Origin: Pediococcus inopinatus
GTDB lineage: Bacteria; Bacillota; Bacilli; Lactobacillales; Lactobacillaceae
Length of the DNA: 64,000 bases
Direction: 5' to 3'
NCBI RefSeq assembly: GCF_002982135.1
Contig: NZ_CP019981.1
Location: 310,001-374,000, forward strand
Position 1 is the first letter of the stretch. Each line of letters begins with the position of its first letter. The notes beneath the pieces are model-generated. The model saw nothing but the letters and a program-made list of their open reading frames with translations. It ran no database searches and was not told the DNA's origin. Below, piece after piece: positions 39,112-59,382 of the stretch. Position numbers and translations under genes: made by a program.

Positions 39112-39756
39112 CTACTTATCGTAGGCCACAACTTCTGCTTGATTATCAGTAAAGTTGAGAATGTTTAGACTGCCATTTTTGATTGGTAAGTGGACATCGA
39201 TCTGCGGATTTAAAAGCTGAATAAGACTTCGGATGGCATCCATGTGTGAAACTACCAATAGCGTTTCCCCATCGTTTGCTTTTTCGGCTAGTTGATCAAT
39301 CCCGGCTAAAATTCGTTTTTTAAAAGTTTGGGCGTCTTCGGCATCATGAAAAGGATCAGCGGCATGCATGGCATCGCGAGTCTCATAAAAAGTGTGGTCC
39401 TTTAAAAAGTCATCAATGCCATTGTAGCCGAGGGGACGGCAAATTGTGTCCCACGTTTCTGGACCGTTGGCACCTTCAAAGTAACCAAAGAAAGCCTCAC
39501 GAATGTTTGGAAGTTGTGTGACTTTTAGAGCGTCATTTTTTGTGTCATCCAAAATGATGTGAGCCGTATGAACGGCTCGGGTTAGATCACTAGAAAATGC
39601 TTGATCAAAGTGAACGTCTTGTACTTTTTTTGCAGCCATATGGGCGTCTTCAATGCCTTGTGGTGTGAGCGGTGCATCGGCCCAACCTTGCATCCGATCA
39701 TATTTATTAAGATAAGTCTCACCATGACGAATGAGATACACAGTAAATTTTTTGAT
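39112..39756 (-). CDS. Histidine phosphatase (phosphoglycerate-mutase-like), apparent ATC start
   Basis: 214 aa, RHG motif in VYLIRHGETYLN, second catalytic histidine in VVSHMDAIRSL. It is a close paralogue of the protein at 49575 (both have YxRMQGW and ADPFHxAED). No ATG, GTG or TTG fits: AGGAAG stands 7 bases before an ATC codon that aligns exactly with the initiator Met of the paralogue. The next in-frame start upstream (GTG at 39813) falls inside the terminator of the previous gene. Role: a metabolite phosphatase of unknown substrate. Confidence 0.8.
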   Translation of the reverse strand: MKKFTVYLIRHGETYLNKYDRMQGWADAPLTPQGIEDAHMAAKKVQDVHFDQAFSSDLTRAVHTAHIILDDTKNDALKVTQLPNIREAFFGYFEGANGPETWDTICRPLGYNGIDDFLKDHTFYETRDAMHAADPFHDAEDAQTFKKRILAGIDQLAEKANDGETLLVVSHMDAIRSLIQLLNPQIDVHLPIKNGSLNILNFTDNQAEVVAYDK

Positions 39757-39786
39757 AAGAACACTTCCTAATTTTAGTTTAATTAT

Positions 39787-39819
39787 AAAAAGAGCAGCAC
39801 ATGAAAATCGCACTACTCT
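39787..39819 (-). terminator. Terminator after the epimerase-like gene
   Basis: On the minus strand GAGTAGTG/GTGCTGCTC (imperfect) followed by TTTTT. Confidence 0.7.
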
Positions 39820-42338: not shown

Positions 42339-42349
42339 GGAGAACTATG

Positions 42350-43324
42350 ATGAAAATTATTACCGTTGAAGAACATTTCGATACACCAGCTAATATTAAG
42401 CAGTTTAATGAATACTCAAAAGTGAAGAATAACAATCCGCGCCAAGAAATTCTTGGAAAGACTTTGACTAATTTCGACAAACGGATTGAGTATATGGATA
42501 AATATGGCATCGATATGCAAGTGATTTCTGATGCTGGTAACTCGCCGCAAGTTTTACCTGATGAGTTGATTGTCGATGCTTCTCGTGCGCAAAATGACAC
42601 ATTGACAGAGGCGGTTTCTACCCGTTCAGATCGTTTGGCCGGGTTAGCAACATTACCAGTCAATAAACCTGAAGAGGCCGCTAAAGAACTTGAAAGAGCT
42701 GTTAAAACACTTGGCTTAAAGGGTGGCATCATTAGTGGTACGATTGATGGCCAATTTTTAGACGCTCCTAAATTTGAACCGATTTTTGCGATGGCCGAAA
42801 AATTAGATGTACCATTGTATTTACATCCTGGCGTTATTAGAGATGAGCAAAAGAAAATTTTGTATGATAGTAAAGCTTATTCACCAGCCTTAGCTACGTT
42901 TATGGGCGGCGCTGCCTGGGGCTGGCATATGGAACAAGGAATCCAAATGGTTCGGTTGATTGTTTCTGGTTTGATGGAAAAGTATCCTAATCTTAAATTA
43001 GTTTCGGGGCATTGGGGTGAATTCGTGCCAATGTTCCTTGAACGATTATCAGAATTTTTACCATTCTCTGGGCTAGATTTACCACATTCTTTTGGGTACT
43101 ACTACAAACGAAATGTCTACGTCACACCATCTGGGATGTTCACTAATCCGCAAATGCAAATGGTACTCACGGAAATGGGCGCCGTTCATTTAATGTATTC
43201 AGAGGATTATCCATACATTGAACGAAAAGAACAAGTCAATGAATTTATTACCAAAGCTGATTTGACGGATGACCAACGTGAGCAATTTGCCCATGGGACG
43301 GCCGAAAAATTATTTAAACTATAA
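42350..43324 (+). CDS. Amidohydrolase-2 family protein (decarboxylase-like)
   Basis: About 324 aa, metal-dependent TIM barrel of the ACMSD/resorcylate decarboxylase group. Seen: N-terminal VEEHFDTP (an EEHF in place of DxHxH), PLYLHPGVI with the metal histidine, VSGHWGEFVP, and YSEDYPYI with the catalytic aspartate. Tandem ATGs follow AAGGAG; the second has better spacing. Paired with a MarR regulator, so it probably acts on an aromatic or hydroxy-acid compound. A pseudogene of the same superfamily lies at 46603-47359. Confidence 0.82.
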   Translation: MKIITVEEHFDTPANIKQFNEYSKVKNNNPRQEILGKTLTNFDKRIEYMDKYGIDMQVISDAGNSPQVLPDELIVDASRAQNDTLTEAVSTRSDRLAGLATLPVNKPEEAAKELERAVKTLGLKGGIISGTIDGQFLDAPKFEPIFAMAEKLDVPLYLHPGVIRDEQKKILYDSKAYSPALATFMGGAAWGWHMEQGIQMVRLIVSGLMEKYPNLKLVSGHWGEFVPMFLERLSEFLPFSGLDLPHSFGYYYKRNVYVTPSGMFTNPQMQMVLTEMGAVHLMYSEDYPYIERKEQVNEFITKADLTDDQREQFAHGTAEKLFKL

Positions 43325-43329
43325 AATCT

Positions 43330-43388
43330 AAAAATAGACATTACAAATTAACTTTCAGTTAAGAGAGTTGCTGTAATGTTTATTTTTG
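43330..43388 (+). terminator. Terminator after the amidohydrolase gene
   Basis: An A-rich left arm containing GACATTACA pairs with TGTAATGT and a T-rich end. An inner hairpin TTAACT/AGTTAA is present. Confidence 0.7.
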
Positions 43389-43414
43389 ATTGGTCGGAAT
43401 TTTTTGAAATTGCT

Positions 43415-43719
43415 TGCCATAATGGTTAGTGTAAAGTTTTAGTAGGAAAATTAAAAAAGCCTTTTCAAAACACGAGAAGACCGTTAATCTTCTAATTAGG
43501 TGTAGTGGAGGCGTTGATGAGAGAGTGTGTCGATGTCACTTGGCGATTTATCGCTTAGAGACATGGGAGACTGGAGAGATCCACTTCTGGCCTGTAAAAG
43601 GCAGAAGTTAGCTCGCAAGCGACCCACACGGCCCCACATCAGCGCCGGAACGGAACTAAAAGCAGATAAAATCTAATTAGCGGCACTACCTACTAAAACT
43701 TGAAACATATGCCATAATG
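43415..43719 (+). other. Structured gene-free element flanked by a 10-bp direct repeat; candidate RNA
   Basis: TGCCATAATG occurs at 43415-43424 and 43710-43719. Just inside lies a 13-bp perfect inverted repeat (43434-43446 with 43689-43701). Within it nest a 10-bp helix (43510-43519 with 43637-43646, one U-G pair on the plus strand), a bulged 8-bp helix (43525-43532 with 43620-43629) and three hairpins: 43475-43493, 43533-43564 and 43583-43608. No open frame of note. The central 150 bases are more GC-rich than the flanks. No Rfam family is recognised. A mobile MITE-like unit, a noncoding RNA, or both are possible. Confidence 0.6.
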
Positions 43720-43793
43720 CGGACTTTAAGATTTATGATAAACTTGTATAATATTAAGCATAGCAATAAAAAACTTTTTTAGGAGATGTTTTT

Positions 43794-44834
43794 TTGAAAG
43801 CAGCAGTATTTATGGAACCAGGAAAAATGGAAGCTCATGAGGTTGAAAAACCACAAATCGAAAAACCAAGCGATGCGCTCATCAAAATTGTCAGAGCCTG
43901 TGTGTGCGGTTCTGACTTATGGTGGTATCGTGGCATTTCAAAGCGAGACACAAACGTCACGGTAGGGCATGAAGCGATTGGCGTTGTGGAAGAGGTTGGC
44001 TCCGAAGTCACTGATATCAAAGTGGGAGACTTCGTGGTTGCGCCATTTACACATGGTTGTGGACACTGTGCTGCTTGTTTAGCTGGTTTTGATGGCGATT
44101 GTTTGAATCCAGTATCTGGGACTAGAGGCGGTTATCAAGCAGAATATTTACGCTATACAAACGCTAACTGGGGATTAGTTAAGATTCCTGGACAACCTAA
44201 AGATTATTCAGATGAACAGCTAAACTCGTTGTTGACCTTATCGGACGTTATGGCTACTGGTTATCATGCAGCTGCAACTGCTGAGGTTAAAAAAGGCGAC
44301 ACAGTGGTGGTTATGGGTGATGGTGCCGTTGGGTTATGTGGTGTGATCGCTGCTAAATTACGCGGTGCAAAACGCATTATTGCCATGAGTCGCCATGAAG
44401 ACCGACAAAAATTGGCTCTTGAGTTCGGTGCTACTGATATTGTACCTGAGCGTGGTGATGAAGCTGTTAAACACGTGATGGAATTAACTGGTACTGGTGC
44501 TGATGCGGTGCTTGAGTGTGTCGGAATGGAACAATCTGTAGATACGGCCGTTAAAGTTGGCCGTCCCGGTGCCGTTGTTGGCCGAGTGGGTATTCCTCAA
44601 AAAGCCGAAATGAATACTAATAACCTTTTCTTCCGCAATATTGGGTTGCGTGGCGGAATTGCGGCTGTGACAACGTATGACAAAGAAATTTTGTTGGATG
44701 CAGTCTTAAATAACAAGATTAACCCAGGAAAGGTATTCACAAAGCGCTTTGACCTGGATCATATTGAAGATGCTTATGAAGCAATGGACAAGCGAACAGC
44801 CATTAAGTCTTTGTTGGTGATCAGCGAAGGTTAA
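43794..44834 (+). CDS. Zinc-dependent alcohol dehydrogenase (MDR family)
   Basis: 346 aa. Catalytic zinc ligands are in RACVCGSDLWWYRG and VGHEAIG. The structural zinc cysteines are in CGHCAACLAGFDGDC. The NAD(P)-binding fold is VVMGDGAVGLCGVIAAK. It starts at TTG with AGGAG 8 bases upstream. Oxidoreductase for an alcohol or aldehyde, cytoplasmic. It stands alone between the structured element and a terminator. Confidence 0.9.
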   Translation: MKAAVFMEPGKMEAHEVEKPQIEKPSDALIKIVRACVCGSDLWWYRGISKRDTNVTVGHEAIGVVEEVGSEVTDIKVGDFVVAPFTHGCGHCAACLAGFDGDCLNPVSGTRGGYQAEYLRYTNANWGLVKIPGQPKDYSDEQLNSLLTLSDVMATGYHAAATAEVKKGDTVVVMGDGAVGLCGVIAAKLRGAKRIIAMSRHEDRQKLALEFGATDIVPERGDEAVKHVMELTGTGADAVLECVGMEQSVDTAVKVGRPGAVVGRVGIPQKAEMNTNNLFFRNIGLRGGIAAVTTYDKEILLDAVLNNKINPGKVFTKRFDLDHIEDAYEAMDKRTAIKSLLVISEG

Positions 44835-45568: not shown

Positions 45569-46147
45569 TTAGGTTTCTGGGTTAAAATCACGAATGACTT
45601 TTGCTAACTTAAAAGTGGACTGGTCAAAGTGATAAACGAAAATGGTGCCATTTGAAAAACCTTTTTCGAGTTCTTCCGTAGGGTCCTGTAACATGCGCAA
45701 AAAATTAAAACAGGCGCCACTATGAGAGACTGCCAAGACTTGTTGATTACCGGGTTTAGACATAATCTTTGTCAAACATTCCAACATCCGTTTACCAACG
45801 GTATTAGAAGATTCACCACCATAAGGCAAGAAAAAAGTTTCAAAATCTTTGGGGGCCTTGGGACTCAGACGCTCGCTTTCACCTTCAAAAACACCGTAAT
45901 TTTGTTCCTTGAGAGCTTTTACCCGTTGATAAGGTAAACGATTTTGTAAAATTAACTCAATTGTGTCAGTGCACCGCTCAGAAGTTGAACTATAAGCATG
46001 ATCCAGTGGAATTTTGGCGAAGAATTTTCCTAGGTTTTGCGCTTGGTCAACTCCTTTTTTAGTTAGCGGAGAATCACACCAGCCTTGAATTTTATGTTCA
46101 ATATTAAATAAAGTTTCTCCATGACGAACAAGATATAAAGTTTTCAT
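45569..46147 (-). CDS. Histidine phosphatase family protein
   Basis: 192 aa, RHG motif in YLVRHGETLFN, second histidine in AVSHSGACFNFL. Shorter and more divergent than the paralogues at 39112 and 49575. AGGAG precedes the ATG, which overlaps the stop of the CMD-type gene (ATGA), so it is the third gene of the MerR-associated operon and its only intact member. Confidence 0.88.
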   Translation of the reverse strand: MKTLYLVRHGETLFNIEHKIQGWCDSPLTKKGVDQAQNLGKFFAKIPLDHAYSSTSERCTDTIELILQNRLPYQRVKALKEQNYGVFEGESERLSPKAPKDFETFFLPYGGESSNTVGKRMLECLTKIMSKPGNQQVLAVSHSGACFNFLRMLQDPTEELEKGFSNGTIFVYHFDQSTFKLAKVIRDFNPET

Positions 46148-49574: not shown

Positions 49575-50240
49575 TTAATTAATTGTTTCGTCTGTTCGAT
49601 TGAAATAATTAACAGAAATTTGAGAATCCTGAATGGTTAATTTTGTGATGCTGCCGTTGCTAGGACTGGTGGTAATATCCATGTCCGGGGCATAGCGGCC
49701 CACAATACTGCGAATCGTTGTCCCATGAGAAACAACGAGAATTTTATCCTGATCTTGACTGTGGTCGATCAAGTAATCAAAGCCCTTATCCAAGCGTTGC
49801 CAAAAATCATGGTGGTCTTCAGCTTCATGGAAAGGATCAGCAGCCTTAACGGCATTTTTTGATTCACTTATATCGTGATCAATCAAAAACTCGTGAAAAG
49901 TCCGTACAGAACTGATCGGTTGTAAGACTTGGAACCAGGTTTGTGCAGAATCAGCACCTTCAAAATAACCATAGAATTCTTCTCGAAACTCTGCTAATTG
50001 TTTTACAGCGAGGCCCGGAGATTTATTGCTATGAGCGATGGTGTTAGCTGTATTAAACGCACGCGTGGTATCACTTGAGTAGGCCGCAGTGAAGGGGATA
50101 TTTGCTAATCGTTGACCAGCAACTTTAGCATCATGCCAACCTTGCTCAGTTAAAGGTGAGTCTGACCAGCCTTGCATCCGATTGTAACGGTTGAAAAAAG
50201 TTTGACCGTGACGTACAAAATAAACTTCAAATGTTTTCAT
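49575..50240 (-). CDS. Histidine phosphatase family protein
   Basis: 221 aa. RHG motif in VYFVRHGQTFFNRYNRMQGW, second histidine in VVSHGTTIRSIVG. Close paralogue of the protein at 39112. AAGGAG precedes the ATG by 7 bases. Likely a broad-specificity phosphatase. Its pairing with a transporter gene suggests a metabolic role, but none can be assigned. Confidence 0.87.
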   Translation of the reverse strand: MKTFEVYFVRHGQTFFNRYNRMQGWSDSPLTEQGWHDAKVAGQRLANIPFTAAYSSDTTRAFNTANTIAHSNKSPGLAVKQLAEFREEFYGYFEGADSAQTWFQVLQPISSVRTFHEFLIDHDISESKNAVKAADPFHEAEDHHDFWQRLDKGFDYLIDHSQDQDKILVVSHGTTIRSIVGRYAPDMDITTSPSNGSITKLTIQDSQISVNYFNRTDETIN

Positions 50241-59013: not shown

Positions 59014-59382
59014 ATATTAACAGGATTGAGGAATAAGTGCAGCTCAATTGTGTCGGAAAATTTGCTACCCAGTTCCGTCACTAACGGACATAGGAATTGC
59101 ACCTCTCCTGCTTACGTGGGAGCCTCGCGGAAGTATCATTATTAACTTAACTTGTACGATCATTAGTTAAAGGTCGTAATCGAAGAGTGGGTGGCGCTCG
59201 TATTCCTGGTCATGGCGTCCGCTGATCAACAGTTCAAGTAAAGTTAGAAAGTTTGGGTAGCAATATTCAGTTTTCAAAGGACTCACAGGTGTTATTGCCT
59301 GCTCACTATATACATACAGATAAAAATAGAAAATGAAACCCAAAAAGCAAACTAATCGAAAAAAGATTAGCTGAAATAATGC

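What the first reader, a model, noticed from the sequence alone, without database searches (positions are those of the whole stretch)
43415..43719. Unexplained branched-structure element bracketed by a 10-bp direct repeat
TGCCATAATG flanks about 285 bases that contain a 13-bp perfect inverted repeat near both ends. The interior shows nested helices: 43510-43519/43637-43646, 43525-43532/43620-43629, and hairpins at 43475-43493, 43533-43564 and 43583-43608. The helices nest like a multibranched RNA. The one non-Watson-Crick pair in the 10-bp helix is U-G on the plus strand and would be an A-C mismatch on the other, which favours a plus-strand transcript. The symmetric direct repeats look like a target duplication. 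Two copies of CTAATTAG (43492-43499 and 43673-43680) could add a pseudoknot. It could be a mobile noncoding RNA element, a MITE, or a long leader of the alcohol dehydrogenase gene.
Basis: partly seen in the sequence, partly recalled or inferred. Interest (0 to 1): 0.75.

Follow-up and report, generated by a model that had tools for sequence, protein, structure and literature searches.

The report
Transposon remnant carrying folded dispersed module
The element is a shrunken copy of a bacterial jumping gene, and its interior is one member of a large, apparently undescribed family of strongly folded, mobile DNA repeats scattered through the genomes of lactobacilli, sometimes more than a hundred per genome.

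Summary
43425-43710 (286 bp) is an internally deleted insertion sequence of the ISLre2 family (a MITE), with TIRs, a 9-bp target duplication GCCATAATG (43416-43424, 43711-43719) and an empty site in a congener. The intact 1723-bp parent, with a 458-aa ISLre2 transposase, occurs in Secundilactobacillus and Loigolactobacillus.

The branched interior (43502-43653) is not a general part of ISLre2: of 29 ISLre2 loci only the parent has it. It belongs to a family of about 150-nt modules found in 63 of 251 Lactobacillaceae genomes, with 104 copies in one two-contig genome and at least 150 in another. The fold (outer stem, three-way junction, two hairpins) has overwhelming covariation, an invariant U.U and a near-invariant A.G mismatch. 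Modules often sit in divergent pairs; in one genus these are inside MITEs with their own TIRs, 8-9-bp duplications and empty sites.

So the MITE guess is right. The alcohol dehydrogenase leader is not supported. "Noncoding RNA" is unproven: selection acts on a folded strand, but the data lean slightly towards single-stranded DNA. Rfam and the paper searches showed nothing like it. The module's role is inferred: a cis-acting folded strand serving the element's own propagation.

The parts
43416..43424 (.). left copy of 9-bp target-site duplication GCCATAATG
   Evidence: sequence; single copy of a diverged homologous site in congener G176; ISLre2 gives 9-bp repeats (PMC8024623, passages)
43425..43710 (+). 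ISLre2-derived MITE, 286 bp; + strand as in the parent's transposase gene
   Evidence: IS positions 1-78 and 1500-1722 aligned at 96% and 86%
43425..43446 (+). left terminal inverted repeat GTTAGTGTAAAGTTTTAGTAGG
43425..43501 (+). retained left end of the IS (IS 1-78), including the first arm of a hairpin that in the parent can pair with the transposase RBS region
   Evidence: hairpin pairing read from sequence
43498..43501 (+). AGGT microhomology at the internal deletion junction (IS 78 joined to 1500)
   Evidence: overlap of the two aligned pieces
43502..43653 (+). folded module (family member)
   Evidence: limits; R2, built without window-type sequences, finds 43512-43644 at E 9e-7, next best in the window 0.3; R1, which has this copy among its seeds, E 2e-19
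43507..43509 (+). GGA, 5' side of a GGA/GGA internal loop outside P1
   Evidence: pattern seen in many copies
43510..43519 (+). P1 5' strand (partner 43637-43646)
43525..43532 (+). P2 5' strand (partner within 43620-43629)
   Evidence: P2 pairs of the common type are mostly not formed here in the R2 alignment
43533..43564 (+). P3 hairpin CTTGGCGATTTATCGCTTAG with conserved U.U mismatch
43576..43614 (+). P4 hairpin GAGATCCACTT...AAGTTAGCTC
43637..43646 (+). P1 3' strand
43647..43649 (+). GGA, 3' side of the GGA/GGA internal loop
43689..43710 (+). right terminal inverted repeat
43711..43719 (.). right copy of target-site duplication GCCATAATG

Best explanation
The element is a non-autonomous ISLre2-family transposon. 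An internal deletion at AGGT removed the transposase gene but kept both ends and the 3' folded module; it moved with a 9-bp duplication, inferably by an ISLre2 transposase acting in trans (no match to one in the genome now). Its interior is one member of a Lactobacillaceae family of folded modules that ride in at least two kinds of transposon: one ISLre2 element, and ~500-bp palindromic MITEs with one module per arm, 3' ends outward. Shown: MITE, empty sites, family membership, covarying fold, conserved mismatches, divergent pairing. Inferred: the module acts as a folded single strand in cis for the element's own spread. I lean to DNA (a Y-shaped foldback extruded on one strand during replication or transposition) rather than RNA, about 55:45.
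For: MITE: NF033529 ISLre2 transposase E 5e-94 in the parent; parent 1723 bp with perfect 9-bp duplication GTACAAGAA; window pieces 1-78 and 1500-1722; empty site in G176. Fold: 92.7% of cells paired versus 69.1% in shuffles (0/500), 37 of 43 pairs with double changes, covariation 0.622 versus at most 0.166 when slid. U.U 46 of 46 and A.G 44 of 46, which argues against arms merely being copied onto each other. Pairs: in fetched loci 35 divergent and no other, each place once and seven hits of E>1e-4 dropped; 36 divergent, 0 convergent, 3 tandem with all hits; 27 divergent and no other in G128. Mobility of paired MITEs: filled, half-filled and empty sites with 8-9-bp duplication at one locus. 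Module kept whole in 10 of 12 ISLre2 derivatives, with six different deletions among those whose left end aligned. Lean to DNA: no orientation bias to neighbouring genes (5 versus 5); T-runs after only 5 of 102 modules; DNA energies favour the module strand in 41 of 46, RNA energies in 26 of 46.
Against: No transposition or transcription data. With 22-nt flanks the RNA energies also favour the module strand (33 of 46; DNA 44 of 46), and in 19 window-type and type-A rows both do (RNA 16, DNA 17 of 19). G-U versus A-C is 48:23 over 46 sequences and fades to 14:7 (p 0.19) over the 10 most distinct. The 12 derivatives were found with a module-containing query, so module retention is partly selected for. 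No autonomous parent of the paired MITEs was found.
Confidence: 0.6

Rival explanations
1. The module is a structured noncoding RNA, transcribed in part with the transposase gene (as its 3' UTR in the intact element) or alone, and acts in trans or holds the transposase in cis.
For: Covarying three-way junction with conserved internal-loop mismatches is typical of RNA; G-U exceeds A-C; module strand equals the transposase coding strand and the module starts 16 nt after the stop codon.
Against: No Rfam match, no plus-strand promoter-like or terminator-like site called in 43300-43830, T-runs after 5 of 102 modules, no orientation bias, G-U only about 2.5% of cells.
Confidence: 0.3
2. The module has no function; inverted repeats are kept paired by replication template switching and spread as passenger DNA of transposons.
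For: 27 of the 30 G128 copies checked overlap no ORF of 90 aa or more, with no orientation bias; modules are absent with clean edges in some congeners at short repeats.
Against: Template switching would also correct the U.U (46 of 46) and A.G (44 of 46) mismatches and would not favour G-U over A-C; junction CGUUCC and GGA/GGA loops recur.
Confidence: 0.12
3. A regulatory leader or promoter-proximal element of the downstream alcohol dehydrogenase gene.
For: Its end lies 83 bases upstream of the TTG start codon at 43794.
Against: Same gene order without the element in G176; five other ISLre2-derived copies with a whole module in the same genome at other places; a TATAAT sits between element and gene (by eye).
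Confidence: 0.03

Closest known systems
ISLre2 insertion sequence family (UPF0236 transposase)
   Same: Same TIRs as the parent and 9-bp target repeats; the parent encodes an ISLre2 transposase.
   Different: 28 other ISLre2 loci gave no module hit; in 17 of them the right end is visible 27-60 nt after the ORF, in the other 11 it is not. The window copy has no gene.
BOX, RUP and SPRITE repeats of Streptococcus pneumoniae (PMC3049150, passages read)
   Same: Small interspersed structured repeats in many copies, MITE-like.
   Different: Different clade; here one three-way-junction module, shared by different vehicles including an autonomous IS, in divergent pairs, with cross-genus covariation.
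bcr1 of the Bacillus cereus group and other stem-loop families (PMC2267715, passages read)
   Same: Dispersed structured repeats of similar size (bcr1 size recalled).
   Different: In the passages seen, the one Lactobacillus genome of that survey gave only a coding-region family, Lac-1.
Parvovirus ITRs, Streptomyces telomeres, integron attC sites (recalled, no call)
   Same: Single-stranded DNA folding into branched hairpins with purine mismatches.
   Different: No such gene was looked for or recognised beside these modules; analogy of shape only.

Membership tests
ISLre2-derived MITE | ends shared with an autonomous ISLre2 element | tested here: met
   IS 1-78 at 96% and 1500-1722 at 86%
ISLre2-derived MITE | 9-bp target duplication | tested here: met
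   GCCATAATG both sides; family value from PMC8024623 (passages)
ISLre2-derived MITE | inserted relative to an empty site | tested here: met
   G176 C126, 47 nt between matches to the two flanks; the only one of 12 genus genomes with both flanks adjacent in the listing
ISLre2-derived MITE | mobilised in trans by an ISLre2 transposase | not testable with these tools
   no transposase match in own genome at E<=1e-20
ISLre2 element as carrier of the module in general | module present between stop codon and right TIR in family members | tested here: not met
   only the parent of 29 loci has it; right end visible without module in 17 of the other 28
Lactobacillaceae folded-module family (this report) | found by a model built without window-type sequences | tested here: met
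   E 9e-7, next 0.3
Lactobacillaceae folded-module family (this report) | P1-P2-P3-P4 fold with U.U mismatch in P3 | tested here: met
   U.U at 43541/43556 read from sequence; P2 differs from the common type
Lactobacillaceae folded-module family (this report) | divergent pair in a palindromic MITE | tested here: not met
   window copy is single, in an ISLre2 remnant
Any Rfam 15 family | score at or above gathering threshold | tested here: not met
   only pemK elsewhere in the window; three relatives give no module match
Bridge RNA (IS110) or TnpB/IscB guide RNA | association with those nucleases or recombinases | tested here: inconclusive
   the only transposase seen with a module is UPF0236/ISLre2; ORFs beside modules were clustered and read by eye, not run against Pfam
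BOX elements | boxA-boxB-boxC sequence modules | not tested
   no BOX model was run

The most novel reading that the evidence does not exclude
The module is a folded single-stranded DNA signal: a Y-shaped foldback with GGA/GGA loops, read on one strand by an unidentified host or mobile enzyme. It lets palindromic MITEs and at least one DDE-transposase IS be copied or joined through a single-stranded step, making it a portable transposition booster shared by different transposons.
Probability: 0.25. Interest if true: 0.88.

Novelty: new variant of a known kind. Interest (0 to 1): 0.68.

Why it matters
A covarying, mismatch-conserving fold present in a few to more than a hundred copies per genome, in about ten genera of lactobacilli (an eleventh by weak matches only), has no match in Rfam and none in the papers searched. 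It is shared by different transposons, so it makes testable the question of whether transposons exchange portable structural signals, and whether the fold acts as RNA or as single-stranded DNA. It also gives a ready model for finding further copies.

Tried and rejected
Rfam at gathering and at relaxed threshold gave nothing credible for the module. That every ISLre2 element carries the module was my first reading; rejected. A general CGUUCC-GGAACG pseudoknot looked good in a few copies but the 3' partner is not conserved (GGAGGACGG in many), so it is not claimed. A parent IS of the paired MITEs was sought by their TIR in four genomes (26 hits in G128, 0 with the reversed pattern; TIR-to-TIR spans of 277 to 529 bp only) and by recurrent ORFs beside modules: none recognised. 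Plasmid and phage searches with a common-type module gave no hit; the window element and a type-A module each hit three Loigolactobacillus backii plasmids. A tRNA control for the wobble ratio failed: the printed part of the ARAGORN output showed no tRNA genes. Paper searches that showed nothing like the module; I saw their listings only (15 of 67 papers) and passages of PMC2267715 and PMC3049150. (ISLre2, 24 papers listed) was for the IS; passages of PMC8024623 were read.

Limits: genome contigs was scanned once and found two copies of the parent. The class C variant (L022, L040), with an extra hairpin, was left out of the models; type-A and window-type copies were left out of A4. A4 holds 46 of the 110 matches, chosen by me as the common type; its ends come from R1 hits, which favours P1 pairing. 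R1 was seeded with window-type sequences, so R2 is not wholly independent of it. Seven of the 251 genomes hold R1 seeds. Searches of more than 40 genomes used stricter filters and scored few places per genome, so copy numbers there are lower bounds.

Full report
What is there. The finding lies between an amidohydrolase-like gene (42347-43324) and a zinc alcohol dehydrogenase gene (43794-44834) (gene names by eye). The 9-bp GCCATAATG brackets 286 bp, 43425-43710, with imperfect 22-bp terminal inverted repeats.

Where it comes from. A DNA search of the own genome gave five further ISLre2-derived copies with a whole module and one with part of it; 20 of 397 family genomes match. In two of them the left 77 and right 212 bases are separated by a 458-aa gene: an ISLre2 transposase (NF033529 E 5e-94; Pfam UPF0236). 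The intact element is 1723 bp (ORF 111-1487, module 1504-1654) with a perfect 9-bp duplication GTACAAGAA; 9 bp is what is reported for ISLre2 (PMC8024623, passages read). The window copy is IS 1-78 joined to 1500-1722 at AGGT. Congener G176 has the same two flanking genes with 47 nt between the flank matches and one copy of the (diverged) target: an empty site. The own genome has no ISLre2 transposase match at E<=1e-20, so the copies are stranded or need an incoming helper.

What the interior is. In 17 of the 28 other ISLre2 loci the right end is visible, 27-60 nt after the ORF, against 236 nt in the parent (sequences); none of the 28 gave a module hit. Short hits to the P3 hairpin in other genera led to the same multibranched fold standing elsewhere. 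A covariance model R1 from nine copies found the module in 63 of 251 Lactobacillaceae genomes at E<=0.01 (57 of 251 with a best E below 1e-6), in 11 of 40 genera, one of them (g30) only by weak matches. Seven of those genomes hold seeds of R1. In 12 genomes rescored at depth the counts at E<=0.01 were 37, 105, 150 (the cap), 16, 84, 31, 45, 54, 67, 82, 9 and 4. A Lactobacillales sample gave 8 of 295, all eight in the own family; a phylum sample 2 of 348, the own genome and one at E 6e-4. The own genome has eight at E<=2e-10: six in ISLre2 remnants and two alone.

The fold. 46 distinct common-type copies, none of window type, were aligned by MAFFT. Of 43 pairs, 37 show changes on both sides; 92.7% of cells pair versus 69.1% in shuffles (0 of 500), and the covariation score is 0.622 versus at most 0.166 for slid partners. 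RNAalifold gives nearly the same structure on its own. A U.U mismatch in P3 is kept in 46 of 46 and an A.G in P4 in 44 of 46. Outside P1 many copies have a symmetric GGA/GGA internal loop. Model R2 from this alignment, without window-type sequences, finds 43512-43644 at E 9e-7; the next best place in 64 kb scores 0.3. The window copy departs from the common type at P2, where most common-type pairs are not formed in that alignment.

Architecture and mobility of the family. Neighbouring modules less than 800 nt apart, each place once and seven hits of E>1e-4 dropped, are divergent in 35 of 35 cases; with all hits 36 divergent, 0 convergent, 3 tandem. In G128 (two contigs), 54 of 104 copies form 27 divergent pairs and the 50 singles split 25/25 by strand. 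The fetched G128 pairs sit in MITEs of about 500 bp with TIR GGTTCTTTCTTAAGTTRGGTTA. At one locus G128 and G245 have the pair, G994 and G195 one module, and G989, G993, G102, G312 and G003 the empty site; the duplication is AAAAATAA, 8-9 bp. At a second locus G994 and G195 keep the MITE without modules and G213 lacks it. Of 30 G128 copies inspected, 27 do not overlap an ORF of 90 aa or more.

How it probably works. The element moves as an ISLre2 passenger. The module is under selection for a folded strand, because mismatches are kept while stems change on both sides. Ten of 12 ISLre2 derivatives kept it whole while losing most of the transposase gene; six different deletions are seen among those whose left end aligned. 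They were found with a module-containing query, so this is suggestive only. Strand: G-U exceeds A-C 48:23, 41:18 at 75% thinning, 19:7 at 65%, 14:7 (p 0.19) at 60%. RNA energies of the core show no strand preference (26 of 46), DNA energies do (41 of 46); with flanks both do (33 and 44 of 46), and for window-type and type-A rows both do (16 and 17 of 19). Related copies share motifs, so these p-values are not independent evidence. No orientation bias towards neighbouring genes was seen (5 sense, 5 antisense among the 10 tandem contexts of 21 singles), and T-runs follow 5 of 102 modules. I therefore lean slightly to single-stranded DNA.

Novelty. ISLre2 MITEs are a new member of a known kind. 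The module family resembles BOX and bcr1 in being a dispersed structured repeat, but differs in its architecture, its conserved mismatches and its sharing between different transposons. Rfam 15 and the paper searches (listings only) showed nothing like it; subscription papers and preprints were not searchable.

Noticed in passing
window 59088-59142 (-): pemK RNA, the only Rfam gathering-level match in the window.
   Followed up: no
window 39112-39813, 45569-46147, 49575-50240 (all -): Three histidine-phosphatase-like (phosphoglycerate mutase type) genes within about 11 kb (names by eye from the translations).
   Followed up: no
window 43330-43387: Inverted repeat between A- and T-rich ends after the upstream gene, a likely bidirectional terminator by eye (not called by the scan); a diverged counterpart stands in G176.
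   Followed up: partly
L043 4204-4262 (-): Intact ISLre2 leader: AGAAGACCGTTA near the left end can pair with TAACGGTCTTC just before ATG and cover the RBS, a known way for ISs to block read-through translation (recalled).
   Followed up: partly
L122 (G179): A single module sits between genes that look by eye like gyrB and gyrA, in the sense direction.
   Followed up: no
L130 1635-2238: The spacer of a module pair holds three near-identical tandem copies of a unit of roughly 95 nt (by eye).
   Followed up: no
L022 and L040 (G299): Class C modules have an additional hairpin, making a larger junction.
   Followed up: partly
L097 1063-1328 (-): A T-box leader lies 172 nt from a module.
   Followed up: no
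G128, G994, G195, G245: TIR-to-TIR lengths are 277, 299, 363, 364, 413 and nine of 501-529 bp (read by eye), compatible with zero, one or two modules per MITE; the module content of each was not checked.
   Followed up: partly
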